Source of the DNA: Algoriphagus aquimarinus
GTDB taxonomy: Bacteria; Bacteroidota; Bacteroidia; Cytophagales; Cyclobacteriaceae
Direction: 5' to 3'
DNA length: 64,000 bases
Assembly: GCF_007997215.1 (NCBI RefSeq)
Contig: NZ_VORW01000008.1
Location: forward strand, 1-64,000
Shown: positions 5,865 to 15,659 of the stretch, piece after piece
How positions within the stretch are numbered: position 1 is the stretch's first letter
Layout: every line of letters begins with the position of its first letter
Notes under the pieces: generated by a model
What the model was told of the DNA's origin: nothing
Seen by the model: the letters and a program-made list of their open reading frames with translations, nothing else
The model's database searches: none
Made by a program: the position numbers and the translations under genes

Positions 5865-6926
5865 ATGAAATCAATGGACCCAGAATTAATTAGGAAATTC
5901 TTTGACGGAAAATGCTCTCCCGAAGAGGTACATCAGGTGTTGATCTGGATTAATTCAGAGGAAGGTGCAAAGGATTTACAGGAGAAGTTTGAAAAATTCG
6001 AACCTACCAATAAGCAAGTGTACATCAATAGTCAGTCAGTATTAGATAAAATCCATGACAGAATAGAGCTGGAAGAAAATGAATCACTTTCCGCCAAGGA
6101 GAATAATGTAAGAAATATCCCTAGTAAAAAAAGGACTAAAAATACGCTCCTTAAACGATGGAAATTGGGGATAGCAATGTCCTTTTTACTCACTGTTATG
6201 GCATCTGCGGTTTGGCTGTTTTCAAACAGGCGACATGAGGAATTACTGACTTTAGATAAGGAAAATCAGATCGAGTACCTGACAAAACAGACTCAATCAG
6301 GGGAGAAGTTGACACTTAAACTAAATGATGGATCTATTATTCAGTTGAATTCAAATACTACAATCCGTTTCCCGAAACATTTTGAAGGGAACACCAGAGA
6401 AGTATACATGGAAGGACAGGCATTTTTCGACGTACATCGGGATGAAAACAAACCTTTCATAGTGCACTCCAGGGACTTAATTACAAGTGTGCTTGGTACT
6501 TCTTTCGCTATACTAGAAGATGCTGCCACTCAAGTCAGTCAGGTTGCCGTTCTGACCGGAAAAGTTAAAGTCTCTATGAGTTCAGAATCAGACCTTGAAG
6601 AAGCTGACGACCTCTACCTAGACCCAATGGATGCTGCTAGTTTTAATGGAGTACAAGGATCATTCGAAAGAATCAAAGTGGATTACGACAATGCTTTTGC
6701 ATGGAAGGACAATGTGATTGTATTTCAGAATGCAACATTTATTGAGGTCCTAAAAAAATTGGAGGATTGGTATGGCGTCAACTTCCAACTGAAAAGTTCT
6801 TTCAAAGCACACAAAGATTACTCAGGAAGATTTGACGATCAGACGCTCGAAGAAATACTGATAGGGCTTTCCTTTACCTATGACTTCGAATATGAAATCA
6901 AAAACGATACAATAATTATTCACTAA
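5865..6926 (+). CDS. FecR-family anti-sigma factor
   Basis: The 353-residue protein has a cytosolic N-terminal region (about 1-98) that should bind the sigma factor and includes a DGKCSPEEVHQVLIW motif. One membrane helix follows (about 100-120, LGIAMSFLLTVMASAVWLF), then a periplasmic FecR domain (about 140-235, SGEKLTLKLNDGSIIQLNS, then EVYMEGQAFFDV) and a C-terminal DUF4974 domain (about 280-350, FIEVLKKLEDWYGVNF). It transmits the state of the outer-membrane receptor to the ECF sigma factor. The susC gene starts 137 bases downstream, so fecR, susC and susD probably form one transcription unit. An alternative start at 5874 (MDPE) cannot be excluded. Confidence 0.93.
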   Translation: MKSMDPELIRKFFDGKCSPEEVHQVLIWINSEEGAKDLQEKFEKFEPTNKQVYINSQSVLDKIHDRIELEENESLSAKENNVRNIPSKKRTKNTLLKRWKLGIAMSFLLTVMASAVWLFSNRRHEELLTLDKENQIEYLTKQTQSGEKLTLKLNDGSIIQLNSNTTIRFPKHFEGNTREVYMEGQAFFDVHRDENKPFIVHSRDLITSVLGTSFAILEDAATQVSQVAVLTGKVKVSMSSESDLEEADDLYLDPMDAASFNGVQGSFERIKVDYDNAFAWKDNVIVFQNATFIEVLKKLEDWYGVNFQLKSSFKAHKDYSGRFDDQTLEEILIGLSFTYDFEYEIKNDTIIIH

Positions 6927-7063
6927 AAACACTGCCTATGAACAGATAGAAGTAGCCGAAAAAACAAAAAGACCATCAATCAAAGCTGGATTTTGCCGTG
7001 CAGCGATGACCAATGATCTGATTGATTACAGACAACAGAATATTATCCATAAACAGAATTATT

Positions 7064-10000
7064 ATGAAAGCAAAGTTACTGAAAAAAATTGTAACCATGG
7101 GAAAATACGCCTTTCTCGGAATGGTCCTTCAGTGCTTATTTTTAAGCACTTTATTGGCTAGTGAGAGCAGTGGCCAGACTAAAATGGAAGAAGTTTTTGT
7201 TTCTATAGAGCAAAAACAAATGCCTATTGAAGAAGTATTCAAGAAAATCGAAAGGGAAACGGACTTCCTGTTTTCTTTTAGAAAGCAGGACCTCAAGGAC
7301 GCTGTGTTTACCAATGCAAATATTGGTGAACAGATCTCCATTGAAAGCCTTTTGCATGAGATTTCAAAAGAATCTAATCTTAAGTTTAAACAGGTCAATA
7401 ATACCATTCACGTAGGAATTAAGAAATCTTCCTCAGCTGAAACAGCACTGGAGAAAGGGGTACTCGTGAAAGGTACTGTGGTGGATGAAAATCAACTACC
7501 TATGCCTGGTGTAACTATCTCCGTCATGGGAACTAACACAGGTACCGTTACCGATGTAGATGGGAATTACTCAATTGATGCACCCGCAGGATCTACTCTC
7601 GTTTTTTCTTTCATTGGTTATGTCAACCAAAACATTGAAATCGGAAGTCAAAGTATCATCAATGTCACCCTTGAGGAAGATACCCGCTCGCTGGACGAAA
7701 TTGTTATTGTAGGTTATGGTACTCAGAAAAAAGTAAATCTCACCGGAGCAATTACTTCTGTGAAGACAGGGGATATCAATGAAATTCCAGCTACCAATTT
7801 ATCCAATACGCTTGCAGGTAGAGCACCTGGTGTGAATGTTACTGGAACATCCGGCTTATCTGGAGCTTCTTCATCCATCAGAATACGAGGGAGCTTTGGT
7901 GACCCTTTATACGTCATCGATGGTATAGTACGCGATAAAAGTGCATTTGATGCGCTTAACTCTAACGAGGTTGACAACTTGAGTTTCCTTAAGGATGCTG
8001 CTTCCGCTTCTATCTACGGCTCTAGGGCTGGTAATGGAGTGGTATTGGTTACAACCAAAAAAGGGGTAGAACAGAAAATGACTATAGGTTTTCAAACCTC
8101 ATACTCTACGTTTAGACCTACGCAGGAATTGCTTTCTGATAAAACTACTGCAACAGATGAACTGATTTACCAAAATAGAGTTGCTGAATTTTTAGGAACC
8201 GCTCCTCCAAATGGTCCTGAGGAATTTGCCTATTTTGAGAATACCAGCTATAACGTGAATGATTTTATTTGGCAAAATCCAAACAGTCAAAACTATGTGT
8301 TGAGTGTTAATGGAGGGAATGAAAAAGTCACTTACTATTCTATGTTAAGCTTTCTTGGCGAACAAGGAGCATACAAAAGTGTAGACCACGGCAAGTTTAA
8401 CCTTCGTAGTAATGTGTCTGCAAAAATCACAAACAGAATCACGCTTGATCTCAATATAGCCGCTACTCAGCAAAACCATGATCGCTTTTACTGGCCGTTC
8501 TCAGGGGATGACGATTACGATGTATCGGATTTGTATAGAGTGAGTTTCAACTGGCCAAAAGTCTATCCTTATTATACTGAGGCAGACGGAACTCCTGCAG
8601 ATCATGTCACTGAATTCCCTCTTCAGACTCCAATGGGAAGCTGGCAGGCATGGAGTGTAATTGACCAGATAGTAGGGGATCGCTACATCAAAACCAGAAA
8701 ACGTCAAGTCAATTCTATTCTATCTCTGAATATAGATTTGAGTGATATGATAGATGGACTTTCTACCAAGGTCGTCGGTAGCTACCTAGCCACAGATTAC
8801 ATGAGAAAGAAGTACCTGACTTACCAGAAAAATTATGTGTTTACGCAGGCTGATCCAGATGGAAATAGATTTATTCCTGCTGCTCCGGATCCTGATAATT
8901 TCAATATTTTTAATTTTAGCCAGAACCAGGAGTTTTTAAGCTATGATTTGGAGACTGGTTGGAGTTACCAGTTTGATTGGTTTTTAAATTATGTAAAGAC
9001 CTTCAATAAGCATGGCATCAATGCTATGCTTGTCTATGAGCAGGCTGAAAATGGTGCGTATGGAGCTTATTCCAAAGCAGAAGACCCTGTTACCAATTAC
9101 GATCAGGACTTTGTTTATTCTCAGGATTCTGAACGCAGATACGGAAGTGGATGGGAAAACGTAGGAGCTAGACAATCTCTGATTGGTAGAGCCAATTATA
9201 ATTTTGACGAAAAGTATATCGCTGAATTCTCCTTTAGATACGATGGCAATACGCTGTTTCCAAAGGGTAACCGCTGGGGCTTCTTCCCTTCAGTGTCTGC
9301 TGCCTGGAGAATAGCTAGTGAAGATTTTATGGCTGGCACCTCTAGCTGGTTGGACGACCTCAAATTGAGAATGTCCTACGGTACCACGGGAAATGACTTG
9401 GATGTTTACAATAACAGAATCAGTCCTTTCTCCTATGTCAATACCTATAGCAACGGTGGTAGCTACATTTTCGGAGATGAACTTTACACCAGTATTGTTC
9501 CGGGAGCTACACCTAACCCCAATCTGACTTGGGCTACTTCCACCACCTACAATGTAGGTTTGGATTTTGAACTGATAGATACCAGACTTTCTGGAACCAT
9601 GGATGTGTTCTACAAGCAAGAAGTTGATATTCTTGGTTCGAGATTAGTTACACTTCCTGATAACTATGGTCAGTCTCTAGCACCTGAAAATTATGCGGAA
9701 AGATCCTGGAAGGGTGGAGAACTTTCACTCCTATGGAGAGATCAATCTGCTGGCGGTAAAGTGAAGTATTCTCTTTATGGCAACTTGGGCTATGCGCGAG
9801 ATCAATGGGATAAACTGGATCAAGATCCTATCTACCTAGCTGGAGGCAACCGCGAAATGGAATCGCAGATTGGTCAACCTAGTGGTAGAATATTTGGACT
9901 TCGTTCCCTCGGAATTATCAGAACGCAAGAGCAACTTAATACGCTTTTGGAATCTGGCTTAAAACAATACGGAAGAGATCCGTACTTGGGTGGATTATAT

Positions 10001-10576
10001 TTTGAAGACGTACGTGGAGACGGTTATACTCCAGGTCCAGATGGGAAAATTGATGGAAATGACTTCCAACTACTTTCTAACAATGCTACTCCAAGGTTGA
10101 ATTATGGCTTTGGTTTTAACCTAGACTGGAATAATTTCTCAATTATTACCCATTTCCAAGGAGTAGGAGTGTATGATCGTATAATCAGCAACCAAGAAGG
10201 TGCGGGTATGAGACAACATGGAGGTTCAATTAGGCCATATTACCCTATATGGGCGGATGATGTGTGGACCCCAGATAGTCCAAATGCCAAATACCCTCGC
10301 CCAGTTGGTAAAAACTGGTATGAATCAGGAACTGGCTCCACTTCCTTCTGGATCAAGAATGGAGCCTATTTAAGACTTAAAAATCTAAATATTGGCTACA
10401 ATGTCCCAACTAAAGTACTCTCGAACTTTAAGATCGCCAGTGCTAAACTCTTCTTTAATGGCACTAATCTCTTTGCTATCTCAGAAGTAAAAGAATTCCA
10501 AGACCCAGAGCAAAAGAACTACGATTCTTTCCCTTTGATGAAATCCTTCACACTTGGTCTTGATGTTAAATTTTAA
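7064..10576 (+). CDS. SusC/RagA-family TonB-linked outer membrane protein
   Basis: I start this at ATG 7064 (MKAKLLKK), which gives a normal signal peptide; an upstream TTG at 7022 is possible but unlikely. The protein of about 1170 residues has a secretin/TonB short N-terminal (STN) domain for contact with FecR, a carboxypeptidase-regulatory-like domain (KGTVVDENQLPMPGVTISVM), a TonB-box region (LDEIVIVGYGTQKK), a plug (SIRIRGSFGDPLYVIDGIVR) and a large beta-barrel. The STN domain marks it as a signal-transducing receptor, consistent with the adjacent fecR and sigma genes. It imports a ligand together with the SusD protein encoded 10 bases downstream. The substrate cannot be read from sequence, and no glycoside hydrolase, peptidase or sulfatase is attached to the locus. 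Confidence 0.95.
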   Translation: MKAKLLKKIVTMGKYAFLGMVLQCLFLSTLLASESSGQTKMEEVFVSIEQKQMPIEEVFKKIERETDFLFSFRKQDLKDAVFTNANIGEQISIESLLHEISKESNLKFKQVNNTIHVGIKKSSSAETALEKGVLVKGTVVDENQLPMPGVTISVMGTNTGTVTDVDGNYSIDAPAGSTLVFSFIGYVNQNIEIGSQSIINVTLEEDTRSLDEIVIVGYGTQKKVNLTGAITSVKTGDINEIPATNLSNTLAGRAPGVNVTGTSGLSGASSSIRIRGSFGDPLYVIDGIVRDKSAFDALNSNEVDNLSFLKDAASASIYGSRAGNGVVLVTTKKGVEQKMTIGFQTSYSTFRPTQELLSDKTTATDELIYQNRVAEFLGTAPPNGPEEFAYFENTSYNVNDFIWQNPNSQNYVLSVNGGNEKVTYYSMLSFLGEQGAYKSVDHGKFNLRSNVSAKITNRITLDLNIAATQQNHDRFYWPFSGDDDYDVSDLYRVSFNWPKVYPYYTEADGTPADHVTEFPLQTPMGSWQAWSVIDQIVGDRYIKTRKRQVNSILSLNIDLSDMIDGLSTKVVGSYLATDYMRKKYLTYQKNYVFTQADPDGNRFIPAAPDPDNFNIFNFSQNQEFLSYDLETGWSYQFDWFLNYVKTFNKHGINAMLVYEQAENGAYGAYSKAEDPVTNYDQDFVYSQDSERRYGSGWENVGARQSLIGRANYNFDEKYIAEFSFRYDGNTLFPKGNRWGFFPSVSAAWRIASEDFMAGTSSWLDDLKLRMSYGTTGNDLDVYNNRISPFSYVNTYSNGGSYIFGDELYTSIVPGATPNPNLTWATSTTYNVGLDFELIDTRLSGTMDVFYKQEVDILGSRLVTLPDNYGQSLAPENYAERSWKGGELSLLWRDQSAGGKVKYSLYGNLGYARDQWDKLDQDPIYLAGGNREMESQIGQPSGRIFGLRSLGIIRTQEQLNTLLESGLKQYGRDPYLGGLYFEDVRGDGYTPGPDGKIDGNDFQLLSNNATPRLNYGFGFNLDWNNFSIITHFQGVGVYDRIISNQEGAGMRQHGGSIRPYYPIWADDVWTPDSPNAKYPRPVGKNWYESGTGSTSFWIKNGAYLRLKNLNIGYNVPTKVLSNFKIASAKLFFNGTNLFAISEVKEFQDPEQKNYDSFPLMKSFTLGLDVKF

Positions 10577-10586
10577 AGAAACTATA

Positions 10587-12347
10587 ATGAAAAGATTACT
10601 ATATATACTCGGATTTATTGTGTTCTCCTTTGGCTGTAATGACATTCTTGAAATTGAGGATATCAACCATTACAGTCCTGAACTTGTGTGGGGTGATGAA
10701 AACCTTGCGAATGCTTACATGGCAAACCTTTATGGTATGTTTGGGAATTGGGATACCGGGGCGGATAGAACCAGTCAGCAAATTGCCGGTATTACCTGGT
10801 ATGCAGATCGGATCACTATCTCCAACGGAGATTATAAGGATTGGAATTATAACAGAATTCGGCTTATTAATCAGGCCATTGTGGATGTAAATGGAGGCGG
10901 ACTCGATCAGGAATTGAAGGATAATATTACTGGCCAAGCCTTGTTTATGCGTGCATTTACCTACTTCAACATGGTGATGTATCATGGGGGAGTACCTTAT
11001 GTGAAAGTGCCTCAGGATCGATATGAAGATGATTTGTTCGTTGCAAGAAATACAACTGCCGAATGCTTCGATTTTCTTATTGAGGACCTAGATCAGGCTA
11101 TTAGTTTGCTACCTGAAAGTATATCTTCAGGTTCTGGAGATTACGGAAAAGTCGATGCTAGTTTTGCCCTGGCATTCAAAGCTAAAGTACTGCTTTATAA
11201 AGCGTCCCCACAGTTCAACCCCTCCAATCCTTGGGAGAATAGCTACTGGACAGAAGCCCAGACAGCCAACAAAGCAGCTTATGAGTCTCTATCTGCACTC
11301 GGTTATGGGTTGGAAGATATGTATTCGGACATTGCTTTAGATGAAGGAAACAGAGAAACGGTGTTTTCTGTCATTAACAGCTATCCTAATAAGTCTGCCA
11401 ATTGGGACTTTGGAGTACGCCCAGGTTCTGAGAGTAGAGGCCCTGCTTCAGCTTGCCCTACTTGGGAGTATATCAAAGAATTCCCCATGCTGGATGGGAA
11501 ATTATACAATGACCCCACTGGACAATATTATATGACTGATGCCGAGTTTCTGCAGAATTACTGGAAAAACAGAGATCCTAGGTTCGACCAATCCATTGTA
11601 TGGAATGGAAAAGTGTATGAAGTTTCAGGCAAATCCGGAAAAAGGCAATATACCTCACTTGGAATAGCGCATGAGCTGGACGACTTTGGTGTTAATCCGA
11701 ACGCAGGTATCAATTCTACTAATCTGGATAGATATACAGGTTTCTTTATACTGAAGAATAGTATGTTGGATTTGACTCAACCAGAAGTTCAGCAATATGA
11801 TGTGGATTATGTATTGATGCGTTTTGCAGAGGTCATGCTGAACTATGCTGAGACTTCCAATGAAACTGGCGATATGACAACCGCCAAGAATATTCTAAAG
11901 GAAATCAGAGAGAGAGCCGGAATACTTCCTGGAGTCGATGGTAACTATGGAATTGTGGCCACTACGCGTGAGTCTATGAGAGAAGCAATCTTAGCTGAAA
12001 GAAATATAGAATTTGCTTTTGAAGGTCATAGGTTCTGGGATTTACGCCGATTGAGAATGCTTGATAGGTTGGATGGACAGACTAAGCATGGGGTGGAAGC
12101 AATTGCAATTGACGAAAATGGAACAGAAATTTCTTTAAGTGTTGGAAGACAATTAGCCTCTAGCTATTCACTTACAGAGAAAAACTTCAAATATCAAGTG
12201 TTACAGGTTCCAAGGTCTGGTGTTCAAAGTAGCGTATTGCCAGAAAATTACTATTTCTTCCCTATACAGAAAGCCGTTTTGGACAGAAACAAACAAATGG
12301 AGCAAAATGTAGGTTGGGGCGGGACATTTGATCCTACCTTAGAATAA
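10587..12347 (+). CDS. SusD/RagB-family nutrient-binding lipoprotein
   Basis: I start this at ATG 10587 because it yields MKRLLYILGFIVFSFGC, a type II signal peptide with the lipobox cysteine followed by Asn-Asp; the longer frame from 10554 would ruin it and overlap susC. The protein of about 586 residues has the TPR-like N-terminal half of SusD (ALFMRAFTYFNMVMYHGGVP) and the C-terminal RagB/SusD block (ILAERNIEFAFEGHRFWDLR), a very typical motif. It is surface-exposed, caps the SusC barrel and captures the ligand. A strong terminator follows at 12376, so the susCD unit ends here. Confidence 0.95.
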   Translation: MKRLLYILGFIVFSFGCNDILEIEDINHYSPELVWGDENLANAYMANLYGMFGNWDTGADRTSQQIAGITWYADRITISNGDYKDWNYNRIRLINQAIVDVNGGGLDQELKDNITGQALFMRAFTYFNMVMYHGGVPYVKVPQDRYEDDLFVARNTTAECFDFLIEDLDQAISLLPESISSGSGDYGKVDASFALAFKAKVLLYKASPQFNPSNPWENSYWTEAQTANKAAYESLSALGYGLEDMYSDIALDEGNRETVFSVINSYPNKSANWDFGVRPGSESRGPASACPTWEYIKEFPMLDGKLYNDPTGQYYMTDAEFLQNYWKNRDPRFDQSIVWNGKVYEVSGKSGKRQYTSLGIAHELDDFGVNPNAGINSTNLDRYTGFFILKNSMLDLTQPEVQQYDVDYVLMRFAEVMLNYAETSNETGDMTTAKNILKEIRERAGILPGVDGNYGIVATTRESMREAILAERNIEFAFEGHRFWDLRRLRMLDRLDGQTKHGVEAIAIDENGTEISLSVGRQLASSYSLTEKNFKYQVLQVPRSGVQSSVLPENYYFFPIQKAVLDRNKQMEQNVGWGGTFDPTLE

Positions 12348-12943: not shown

Positions 12944-13834
12944 TCAGGAGCTGATTTCAAGCTTATAGCCTTTGCCTCGTATAACTACAATGTTGATGTT
13001 CGGATCAACTTCCATTTTTTTTCTGAGTTTTGATATAAACATATCAAGACTGCGGCCTACAATTACACCATCGTCCTCCCAGATCTCTTTTTGTAGCCGA
13101 CTCCGCTCTATAACCTCGTTAGGAAACAACGCGAAAATTTGCAATACACGGGTTTCAGTTCTGGTCAGTTCGATGGTCTTTCCATTTATCATGAGCTTGC
13201 GAGTCTCTGCATCGAATGACATGGATCCCCAAGTGAACAAACTAGTATTCCGACTGTAGTGTGAGGACCTCCCCGGCTTGACAGATCTCAAAAAAACAAA
13301 ACCAACAAATACTATTGCCAGAAGAGATCCAAATAAGTACACATTTTTTGCCAAGGAGATGCCCGCTGGATTAAATTGAATGTTGACCGTGTAACATCCT
13401 ATAGGTTGCCTTCTTCCTAGGCAGGCTATAATGTCATCTTTCTTGTTTTTTGATATTGCATATCCATAAACTACACTGGCATCGGTACAGTTAACTACGT
13501 TCACAACATAATCACGTGCAAACGGACCTTCGGCTAACAAACGTTGTATAGTATTTACGAGGGAGTCGGGCTGAAAACTAAGCTCATTCTCAAAACTGAC
13601 CTGATATTCATTTTCGGCTATCTTTTTTACCGGAAGCACCCGTGATGTACTGTCGCCTGACTGTAAAAGTATCTCATGCCCAATTCTGCGAAGTAAAACT
13701 TCCTGCCTGGCAAGATCAAAGTCATCACTGCCTACCATGCTGAATCCCACGCAGATCAACGAGATAAAGATAACCAGTACTGATCCATACAAGTAGTTGT
13801 GTTTTTCGGAGAGGAGCTTTTGTATGAGATCCAT
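12944..13834 (-). CDS. Membrane-anchored winged-helix transcription regulator, C-terminal DNA-binding domain
   Basis: This 296-residue protein has an N-terminal membrane helix (about residues 16-34, LYGSVLVIFISLICVGFSMV), an extracytoplasmic domain of about 130 residues with two conserved-looking Cys (in VNCTD and ACLGRR), a second membrane helix (about 163-182) and a C-terminal OmpR/PhoB-type winged helix (about 205-294, LTRTETRVLQIFALFPNEVI, RSLDMFISKLRKKM, VVIRGKGYKLE). It resembles ToxR/CadC one-component regulators, but the order is reversed: in ToxR the DNA-binding domain comes first. The two membrane passes put both N- and C-termini in the cytoplasm. There is no phosphoacceptor domain. 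It is divergent from the propeller lipoprotein gene at 13953, a plausible target. Confidence 0.85.
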   Translation of the reverse strand: MDLIQKLLSEKHNYLYGSVLVIFISLICVGFSMVGSDDFDLARQEVLLRRIGHEILLQSGDSTSRVLPVKKIAENEYQVSFENELSFQPDSLVNTIQRLLAEGPFARDYVVNVVNCTDASVVYGYAISKNKKDDIIACLGRRQPIGCYTVNIQFNPAGISLAKNVYLFGSLLAIVFVGFVFLRSVKPGRSSHYSRNTSLFTWGSMSFDAETRKLMINGKTIELTRTETRVLQIFALFPNEVIERSRLQKEIWEDDGVIVGRSLDMFISKLRKKMEVDPNINIVVIRGKGYKLEISS

Positions 13835-13952: not shown

Positions 13953-14969
13953 ATGATAAAATACTTTTCAGTCAACGCTTTATTCTTGATGTTAGTTTTT
14001 CTTACCTCCTGTGAACAAAACCAAACGAAGGAAACAAAAGAAATTATTAGCCCTATAGTTATCAAGCCCGAAATCAAAGACTCAATTACTACATACGTTT
14101 GGGATATCAAGCAAGACAGAAAAGGAAACATTTGGTTTGCAGCTAGTGATGGCGTTTACCGATACGATGGCAAATCGTTTATTAATATCACAGGTAAACT
14201 GATCTCAGTTTTCATTTTTTCTATTTTGGAAGATAGCAAAGGAAATTTTTGGTTCGGTACCTATGGCTCAGGTGCTTATTATTACGATGGAAAAACCTTT
14301 CAGAATTTCACAACCCAGGATGGGCTTGCACATAATTCGGTAAGGCCTATTTATGAAGATAAAGATGGTATTATTTGGCTTGGAACCGAAGGTGGAGTGA
14401 GCCGTTTCGACCCTTCGGTTCCGCTCAGGATAGGTGGGAAATCGTTTCAAAATTTTACAACCTCGGAAGGATTGACCAATAATGATGTTCATGCTATAGT
14501 TCAAGACAAAACAGGAAAAATGTGGTTTGGCACAAGGGGAGATATGACCATTTATGATGGAAAAACATTTACTACTCTTACCGATAAAGACGGCAAAACT
14601 TTTAAGAATGTATGGGCTATAATCAAAGACAAAAATGACAATATCTGGTTCGGTGCCGATGCTCTTTGGCGCTATGACCCTTCGGCTTCGCTCAGGGCGG
14701 GTGGCAGTGCCTTTACCCAAATTGATCAGATAGGTGCTGGTGTTATAATCAATGATAAGAAGGGAAACGTCCTGACTAGTATAGGTGGCCCCATTTTCCG
14801 GTATGATGAACATACATTGTCTGATAATAAGCCAGATGTAACAGTAATAAAGACAAAATATGAAGGACGTAGTATGCCTTTTGGATTGTTAGTGGCCGAT
14901 GATGGAAGTATTTGGATTAGATCTGAACGTTATAGTTATGATGGAAAAACCCTCACTTTGTCTAAGTAA
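13953..14969 (+). CDS. Reg_prop-type beta-propeller lipoprotein with in-frame repeat insertions
   Basis: The 338-residue protein starts with a lipoprotein signal (FLMLVFLTSC) and consists of repeated blades of the two-component-regulator propeller type: a W-F-G/A turn, then YDGKSF or YDGKTF, then FTTQDGL and N-x-V. Full-length Reg_prop sensors in Bacteroidota have about 14 blades plus a Y_Y_Y domain and a kinase; this one has only about six or seven and no kinase, so it is a stand-alone lipoprotein, possibly a truncated sensor. In two blades the expected YDGKSF is replaced by FDPSVPLRIGGKSF and YDPSASLRAGGSAF, an in-frame gain of eight residues encoded by a palindromic repeat (14411 and 14678). 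It is divergent from the membrane regulator at 12944. Confidence 0.8.
   Translation: MIKYFSVNALFLMLVFLTSCEQNQTKETKEIISPIVIKPEIKDSITTYVWDIKQDRKGNIWFAASDGVYRYDGKSFINITGKLISVFIFSILEDSKGNFWFGTYGSGAYYYDGKTFQNFTTQDGLAHNSVRPIYEDKDGIIWLGTEGGVSRFDPSVPLRIGGKSFQNFTTSEGLTNNDVHAIVQDKTGKMWFGTRGDMTIYDGKTFTTLTDKDGKTFKNVWAIIKDKNDNIWFGADALWRYDPSASLRAGGSAFTQIDQIGAGVIINDKKGNVLTSIGGPIFRYDEHTLSDNKPDVTVIKTKYEGRSMPFGLLVADDGSIWIRSERYSYDGKTLTLSK
14411..14438 (+). repeat. CCCTGAGCG-type dispersed repeat inside a coding sequence, copy 1
   Basis: The segment CCCTTCGGTTCCGCTCAGG followed by ATAGGTGGG lies inside a propeller blade and adds eight residues (PSVPLRIG) in frame. Its reverse complement has the CCTGAGCGNAACCGAAGGG form of a repeat that is widely dispersed between genes in Bacteroidota. 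Confidence 0.75.
14678..14704 (+). repeat. CCCTGAGCG-type dispersed repeat inside a coding sequence, copy 2
   Basis: The segment CCCTTCGGCTTCGCTCAGG followed by GCGGGTGG inserts PSASLRAG in frame at the equivalent place of another blade. It is nearly identical to the copy at 14411. Confidence 0.75.
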
Positions 14970-15086: not shown

Positions 15087-15659
15087 ATGAAAAATAAAAG
15101 AAAAGTTTTGTCCTGCCTGATTATCCTGTTAACAGGAGTAATCTATTTTGCCGTACATGCTCAACAAAAAAATGACACGCAACGCGCTGACTTTTCCGGT
15201 GTATGGAAATCCAAAGAGTCTATAAGTATGGGCGGAAATATTGTTTGCAGCTTCGATTCAGGTGATCGTATGCTGGCTAATTTTATGAAAATATCACAGC
15301 AGGAAAATGCTCTAAATATAGAAATATCAAGCTCTTTTCCTGGTACAGCGCCAGTTGCAGGCAAGGAAACACTAACCTTCGATGGAAAAGAAAGCCAAAT
15401 TAATCATGGTCCGGAAAGAGGAAAAAAATTTAGCGTAAAGTGGTCAGCTGATGGACAAACTATGACTGTTAACTCAACTGTACACCTGATGATTGCCAGT
15501 CCTTATAAAGTAAATTCTCATGAACAAATGATTGTTTATGTAACAGAGGTTTGGAAGTTGAGCAATGATGGCAAGTCTATTTCTGTTCAGGCCAAAGCAA
15601 AATCAGACTCCCTTGGGGAAGAGCGTTTCTGGACTACCGTATTCGATAAAGCCAATTAG
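15087..15659 (+). CDS. Exported protein of unknown function, lipocalin-like
   Basis: This 190-residue protein has a signal peptide (about residues 1-25, LSCLIILLTGVIYFAVHAQ), then DFSGVWKSKESISMGGN and alternating beta strands such as ALNIEISSSFPGTAPVAGKE and KKFSVKWSADGQTMTVNS. The D-x-SG-x-W start and the all-beta pattern with W-x-L/S-DGK turns resemble lipocalin-like exported proteins that measure changes in a signal, for example DUF-type proteins near propeller sensors. I cannot name the family. It lies 117 bases after the propeller lipoprotein on the same strand and ends at a terminator, so the two may be co-transcribed. Confidence 0.6.
   Translation: MKNKRKVLSCLIILLTGVIYFAVHAQQKNDTQRADFSGVWKSKESISMGGNIVCSFDSGDRMLANFMKISQQENALNIEISSSFPGTAPVAGKETLTFDGKESQINHGPERGKKFSVKWSADGQTMTVNSTVHLMIASPYKVNSHEQMIVYVTEVWKLSNDGKSISVQAKAKSDSLGEERFWTTVFDKAN

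What the first reader, a model, noticed from the sequence alone, without database searches (positions are those of the whole stretch)
14411..14704. A dispersed palindromic repeat has inserted in frame twice into a beta-propeller gene
Two blades of the propeller lipoprotein carry PSVPLRIG and PSASLRAG exactly between D and GKSF/GSAF of the standard YDGKSF blade. The DNA (CCCTTCGGYTYCGCTCAGG plus a GGTGG tail) is the reverse complement of the CCCTGAGCGNAGYCGAAGGG repeat that Bacteroidota carry between genes. The insert length (24 bases) keeps the frame. This resembles Rickettsia palindromic elements that live inside coding sequence. Seen directly: the insert position and repeat identity; the dispersal of the repeat is known from memory; insertion as the mechanism is inferred.
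Basis: partly seen in the sequence, partly recalled or inferred. Interest (0 to 1): 0.75.

Follow-up and report, generated by a model that had tools for sequence, protein, structure and literature searches.

The report
Repeat-derived peptides inserted into propeller blades
A short scattered DNA repeat has landed twice, in frame, in the same hairpin turn of two blades of one bacterial surface protein; such events are a known kind, but this one has a clean empty-site comparison and recurs at the same turn in other bacteria.

Summary
The 338-residue Reg_prop beta-propeller lipoprotein at 13953-14969 (+) carries two 24-base inserts (14412-14435, 14679-14702), each between D and G of a blade. The syntenic Algoriphagus resistens orthologue (91.5% identical over aligned DNA) lacks both without a scar; two further orthologues lack them too. 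The inserts match a CCCTTCG..CGCTCAGG repeat scattered through this genome (25 other copies within 2 mismatches) and through the class. One correction: those 25 copies all read CGAC and 19 carry a GTCA flank, while both inserts read CGGY and end in RYRGGT, like copies in other Bacteroidota; so the immediate source is unresolved. The event is not unique. The same repeat sits at the same turn in propellers of at least four other genomes, and other short inserts use that turn. In this genome the repeat is also in frame in a restriction-methylase linker that is filled repeatedly in the genus. In-frame palindromic repeats are known (Rickettsia RPEs; intragenic REPs, PMC3733652). This is a new member of a known kind; the recurrent landing turn is its interesting part, seen in a sample biased toward filled turns. 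The mobilising enzyme and any benefit of the peptides are unknown.

The parts
13953..14969 (+). Reg_prop beta-propeller lipoprotein gene, 338 aa
   Evidence: ORF; PF07494 E 9.5e-30; AlphaFold2 model mean pLDDT 82.5, pTM 0.81
14412..14435 (+). insert 1, 24 bases, PSVPLRIG, between D153 and G162 (third D-G turn)
   Evidence: absent from L079, L080, L081; lies between strands 148-152 and 166-168 of the model
14679..14702 (+). insert 2, 24 bases, PSASLRAG, between D242 and G251 (fifth D-G turn)
   Evidence: absent from L079, L080, L081; lies between strands 238-241 and 254-258 of the model
14411..14429 (+). repeat core CCCTTCGGTTCCGCTCAGG
14678..14696 (+). repeat core CCCTTCGGCTTCGCTCAGG
12944..13834 (-). 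neighbouring gene, C-terminal part like response-regulator DNA-binding domains; syntenic in A. resistens (83% DNA)
   Evidence: (the listed matches are all below their models' cut-offs)
15087..15659 (+). neighbouring 190-aa gene, syntenic in A. resistens (83% DNA)

Best explanation
A 24-25 base REP-like repeat (core CCCTTCGGYTYCGCTCAGG with a tail ending GGT) was added in frame at the D|G turn of the third and fifth blades after this lineage split from Algoriphagus resistens. It survived because that turn, between the third and fourth strand of a blade, is a loop that can grow, because the repeat has no stop codon in this frame, and because its ends encode D-P...G-G, which fits a hairpin turn. 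Shown: the inserts, their absence in the orthologue, the dispersal of the repeat, and the use of the same turn elsewhere. Inferred: that each copy arrived as a repeat and not by copying from another blade or from a foreign propeller gene, and that the loops are merely tolerated.
For: Empty sites in L079 (91.5% identical over 966 aligned bases), L080 and L081. The window and L079 are sisters at 100/100 and share three syntenic genes. The repeat is dispersed in this genome, in 38 of 72 genus genomes at up to 1 mismatch, and in the exact CGGYTYCG form in 23 of 345 class genomes. The same repeat lies at the same turn in L191 (two blades), L283 (two blades), L177 and L086. A second in-frame acceptor exists in this genome, a Type ISP methylase linker. 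In the model the two inserts lie between strands that are kept.
Against: All 25 other copies listed in this genome read CTTCGAC and 19 of 25 carry a GTCA flank, unlike the inserts. The full 29-base form with tail was found, at up to 2 mismatches, in only 3 of 395 phylum genomes, this one included. The two inserts differ at 5 of 24 bases. The in-gene strands fold no better than shuffles. No target duplication is seen. No transposase is tied to the repeat: two PF01797 genes, no repeat core in their loci. In the L082 genome another 15-base insert sits in several blades of two neighbouring propeller genes and has no exact copy elsewhere, so spread between blades does happen. Of 35 other genus genomes searched, the closest listed match was only 36% identical, so the gene itself is patchy and may move.
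Confidence: 0.75

Rival explanations
1. Insert-bearing blade DNA was acquired by recombination with a foreign propeller gene, or copied between blades, so the repeat entered some propeller once and then spread with blades.
For: The inserts are not of the form of the 25 own-genome copies. The propeller tree does not follow taxonomy. L082, G914 and G922 carry one 15-base insert type in several blades, and in the L082 genome the exact 13-mer has no copies outside two neighbouring propeller genes. L283 has the repeat in two blades of one protein.
Against: The flanks of both inserts match A. resistens closely apart from the YD codons of site 1, so any exchanged tract is about the insert itself. The two inserts differ at 5 of 24 bases. 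L191 has the repeat in turns 2 and 5, the window in 3 and 5.
Confidence: 0.3
2. The inserts are ancestral and were lost in A. resistens and other orthologues.
For: Other orthologues carry other peptides at the same turns, so the turns do vary in length.
Against: Loss would have to be exact many times: of 23 aligned rows with data at turn 5 only the window and L191 are filled, and of 24 rows at turn 3 only the window carries this repeat, 8 others a different peptide.
Confidence: 0.05
3. The resemblance to the repeat is coincidence: a protein-level loop motif DPSA..LR.GG that happens to be encoded alike.
For: Reg_prop blades often read YDP..G (recalled), and some diverged loops share only the protein pattern.
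Against: Two exact 19-mers with 0 of 100 shuffles giving two hits; DNA matches of 20 and 23 of 24 to the repeat consensus, 0 of 500 shuffles each (the consensus was written by me with these inserts in view); the same DNA word lies between genes and in unrelated genes elsewhere.
Confidence: 0.02

Closest known systems
Rickettsia palindromic elements (RPE), coding copies
   Same: short dispersed repeat inside unrelated genes, open in frame, adding peptide; PMC3733652 (section 15 read) equates intragenic R. conorii repeats with RPE-4 and RPE-6 and reports a REP in its DnaE gene; here L214 has the repeat inside a DnaE-like gene
   Different: 24 bases only; Bacteroidota; homology of the sequences not tested; weak predicted hairpin
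Intragenic REPs, CGTC superfamily (PMC3733652)
   Same: dispersed short repeat, superfamily reported in Bacteroidetes, found inside ORFs, no linked transposase; REPs at about the same site in Xanthomonas recB genes
   Different: own-genome copies have GTCA rather than CGTC and a 5-bp predicted stem with a 12-base loop rather than 8-9 bp and 4-5; in-gene copies lack the tag
MITEs inserted in genes
   Same: small element adding peptide
   Different: far shorter than the 70-300 bp given in PMC3733652, and no target duplication at the empty-site comparison

Membership tests
Rickettsia-type coding palindromic elements | same repeat both between and inside genes | tested here: met
   own genome: 25 other copies; 17 touch no open frame of 90 residues, one lies in a domain-bearing methylase gene
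Rickettsia-type coding palindromic elements | in-frame insertion shown by an empty orthologue | tested here: met
Rickettsia-type coding palindromic elements | palindrome | tested here: inconclusive
   energy: in-gene copies fold no better than shuffles (120 and 154 of 200 as good), own-genome form 62 of 200; comparison: own-genome copies pair the outer stem as ACCCT/AGGGT or AGCCT/AGGCT, changes on both sides
Rickettsia-type coding palindromic elements | sequence homology to RPE families | not tested
   no RPE sequences compared
CGTC-tagged REP | unpaired CGTC tag at one end | tested here: inconclusive
   19 of 25 own-genome copies carry GTCA beside the core, not CGTC; the in-gene copies have neither
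CGTC-tagged REP | stem 8-9 bp, loop 4-5 | tested here: not met
   own-genome form: 5-bp stem, 12-base loop; definition from PMC3733652 passages
CGTC-tagged REP | no linked transposase gene | tested here: met
   two PF01797 genes, no repeat core in their 3360- and 3204-base loci; other transposase families not searched
IS/MITE insertion | target-site duplication | tested here: not met
   empty GAT|GG and GAC|GG against the filled sites show none
Reg_prop propeller | PF07494 match and propeller-like strands | tested here: met
expressed protein with the extra peptide | translation of the insert in cells | not testable with these tools
   only the open frame is shown

The most novel reading that the evidence does not exclude
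The turn between strands three and four of Reg_prop blades is a general landing place in Bacteroidota: several unrelated short repeats enter it independently and then spread from blade to blade, so that scattered repeats act as a supply of new surface loops on these propellers.
Probability: 0.3. Interest if true: 0.72.

Novelty: new member of a known kind. Interest (0 to 1): 0.5.

Why it matters
It gives a clean case, with an empty-site orthologue, of a scattered bacterial repeat becoming protein sequence in Bacteroidota. Because propeller blades repeat, one protein offers several equivalent sites, so one can ask whether insertion is targeted or merely tolerated. The methylase linker in the same genus is a second, independent place to ask it.

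Tried and rejected
Chance match: rejected. Ancestral state with loss: rejected on the orthologue rows and the tree. Strong hairpin as the driver: not supported by energy, though the outer stem shows two-sided changes among own-genome copies. RAYT-type transposase beside the repeat: none found. The 25 own-genome copies as direct source: not supported. The 15-base CCCRGACGGGCAG inserts as dispersed repeats: in the L082 genome only 3 exact copies, in two neighbouring propeller genes; G045 has 1, in the propeller; G064 (Runella, L085) has 4, of which 1 lies in the propeller; G059 (L080, no insert) has 8 against 3 for the control; the other 6 of 10 genomes have none. One search used a blended pattern with 3 mismatches; its counts are near the control in several genomes, so I use it only for G185 and to match the genome of L079 to G767. 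Literature: no paper holds the repeat letters searched; listings for Algoriphagus with palindromic and for beta-propeller with palindromic repeat or in-frame insertion showed nothing relevant among the 10 listed of 11 and of 130. Limits: the loci were fetched with queries that contain the insert, so filled turns are over-represented, and searches give only the best matches as loci. The hand-written motif gave 73 rows, most of them not inserts, and missed some inserts; I picked the inserts by eye. Only two of the 28 copies in L209-L236 named here for function lie inside catalytic-type domains (L214, L236); I did not compare them with empty orthologues.

Full report
What is there. The gene at 13953-14969 (+) encodes 338 residues with a Reg_prop match. 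Blades read YDGKSF or a variant; the third and fifth D-G turns read FD[PSVPLRIG]GKSF and YD[PSASLRAG]GSAF. The DNA is GAC|CCTTCGGTTCCGCTCAGGATAGGT|GGG and GAC|CCTTCGGCTTCGCTCAGGGCGGGT|GGC. The 19-base core is found twice in the window and nowhere else in it at up to 3 mismatches; no shuffle of 100 gave two hits.

Empty sites. The best match in the genome collection is L079, Algoriphagus resistens (very near records may be left out of that search). Its propeller and both neighbouring genes align with the window at 83-85% by blastn; over aligned bases only, the propeller genes are 91.5% identical over 966 bases. L079 has GAT|GGG and GAC|GGC at the two sites, with neither peptide. L080 (Larkinella) and L081 (a Sphingobacteriaceae MAG) are empty too. 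The tree of 23 rows, built after cutting listed loop peptides, joins the window with L079 at 100/100. The genome of L079 (G058) shares a repeat position and size with G767, a genus member, so I infer that the window is an Algoriphagus in the GTDB sense. The two inserts thus most likely arose after that split. The gene is patchy: among 35 other genus genomes the closest listed match is 36% identical.

The repeat elsewhere. In this genome 25 other copies lie within 2 mismatches, with 0 hits for the reversed control pattern. All 25 read CTTCGAC; 19 of 25 have GTCA beside the core. One further, more diverged copy beside L008 reads CTTCGGTTTCGCACTGAG. In the genus, 38 of 72 genomes hold a copy within 1 mismatch; among the places listed there the CGGYT form occurs only in the window gene and once each in G019 and G021. 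In the class, the exact CGGYTYCG form is in 23 of 345 genomes, up to 15 copies in one. The full 29-base form with its tail is rare: at up to 2 mismatches, 3 of 395 phylum genomes, this one included. Two copies outside propellers, L176 and L213, have the tail GGGCAGGT, like the window's GGGCGGGT. So the inserts resemble a form known from other Bacteroidota more than the genome's own.

In-frame copies in other genes. Of 28 class loci fetched with the exact core (L209-L236), 12 overlap an open frame of 150 residues or more on either strand. I scanned 8 of those 12 with Pfam and all 8 have a domain: among them a DnaE-like protein with the repeat inside the polymerase domain (L214), an asparagine-synthase-like protein with it between domains (L229), and a sulfatase-modifying-factor-like protein with it inside the domain (L236). 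The other 4 were not scanned and some look spurious. In this genome 8 of the 25 other copies touch an open frame of 90 residues or more; one of the 8, in a Type ISP methylase (L027; PF18135, PF07669), was checked and convinces; the other 7 were not checked.

A second recurrent acceptor. The methylase linker before FAPIDLLDYIY was read in 13 of 15 fetched genus loci, the own one included; L271 and L278 gave no row in the script. The repeat, intact or diverged, is read in the own copy (L268), L280, L281 and L282. L273 holds what look like its two halves around another stretch. L274 holds a different peptide, LTPNPSPEGDG, which I recall as another repeat-derived one. L269, L276, L277 and L279 have a short linker; L270, L272 and L275 have a longer linker without the repeat. 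L269 is the best match to the own protein (87%). Which states are gained and which lost was not tested.

The same turn in other propellers. L191 (G185) has two: YN[TSAPLSAG]SKS and YD[PSTELRAG]GGTF, matching the repeat consensus at 20 and 19 of 24 bases, against 20 and 23 for the window (0 of 500 shuffles in each). L283 (G1073, same family) has it in two blades, L177 (G429) once, and L086 (Emticicia) at 18 of 21 and, diverged, at 16 of 24. Other inserts use the same turn: 15-base CCCAGACGGRCAG types in L082, L202, L309 and L310; 15-base inserts of similar make in L085, L086, L287 and L292; and a type beginning GCCCGCCTGCC in L087 and L294. In the L082 genome the exact 13-mer occurs 3 times, all in two neighbouring propeller genes, so there it spread between blades and genes and is not a dispersed repeat. 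These loci were fetched with queries holding the insert, so I give no frequency.

Structure. The model (10 sequences, mean pLDDT 82.5) puts insert 1 between strands 148-152 and 166-168, ten-residue blocks at 74 and 79, and insert 2 between strands 238-241 and 254-258 with a short helix at 243-247, block at 69. A blade without insert has a four-residue turn there (strands 67-71 and 76-78). That this is the turn between the third and fourth strand of a blade, and exposed, is my reading of the strand order; I did not measure exposure.

Palindrome. By energy the in-gene strands fold no better than shuffles (120 and 154 of 200 shuffles as good); the own-genome form is slightly better (62 of 200) with a 5-bp stem and a 12-base loop. 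Among own-genome copies the outer stem reads ACCCT/AGGGT in some and AGCCT/AGGCT in others, two-sided changes that speak for pairing in the dispersed form.

Mechanism. Shown: insertion relative to orthologues, frame kept, dispersed repeat. Inferred: arrival as a repeat, tolerance in a loop. Unknown: the enzyme. Two PF01797 genes exist in this genome, neither with a repeat core in its fetched locus. PMC3733652 (abstract passages, section 15 and further passages seen) reports CGTC REPs in Bacteroidetes among other phyla, intragenic REPs in several species, intragenic R. conorii repeats as RPE-4 and RPE-6, and no transposase linked to CGTC REPs. The present repeat does not meet that family's stem and loop definition, so I call it REP-like and do not file it there.

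Verdict. The source and mode of copying are open. It is a new member of a known kind, raised in interest by the repeated use of one structural turn, which my biased sample suggests but does not prove.

Noticed in passing
L268-L282 (own genome G000:C55:120964-121278 and genus relatives): The Type ISP methylase linker before FAPIDLLDYIY holds the repeat, another repeat-like peptide, or neither, depending on species: a second recurrent in-frame acceptor.
   Followed up: partly
L013, L014, L023 (one core each seen in L024, L026), own genome: Pairs of the core in opposite orientation about 109 bases apart, with a CTCTCCCTCTCCCT-like stretch between, apparently a longer composite repeat.
   Followed up: no
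L273: The repeat in the methylase linker looks split by another short stretch, as if one insert landed in another.
   Followed up: no
L082, L285, L286 propeller genes: One 15-base insert type sits in up to three blades of one gene and in a neighbouring propeller gene; in the L082 genome it has no other exact copies, which suggests copying between blades.
   Followed up: partly
L087 and L294: A different insert beginning GCCCGCCTGCC at the same D-G turn (51 bases in L087, 21 in L294).
   Followed up: no
L008, own genome: A diverged repeat copy with the CGGTT form, CTTCGGTTTCGCACTGAGTGACA, beside other copies.
   Followed up: no
L079:1756-2895: A. resistens has an open frame of 379 aa between the regulator and the propeller that the window lacks.
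   Followed up: no
window 5865-12347: Genes that look like FecR, SusC/TonB-receptor and SusD types (recognised from memory, not searched) lie upstream.
   Followed up: no
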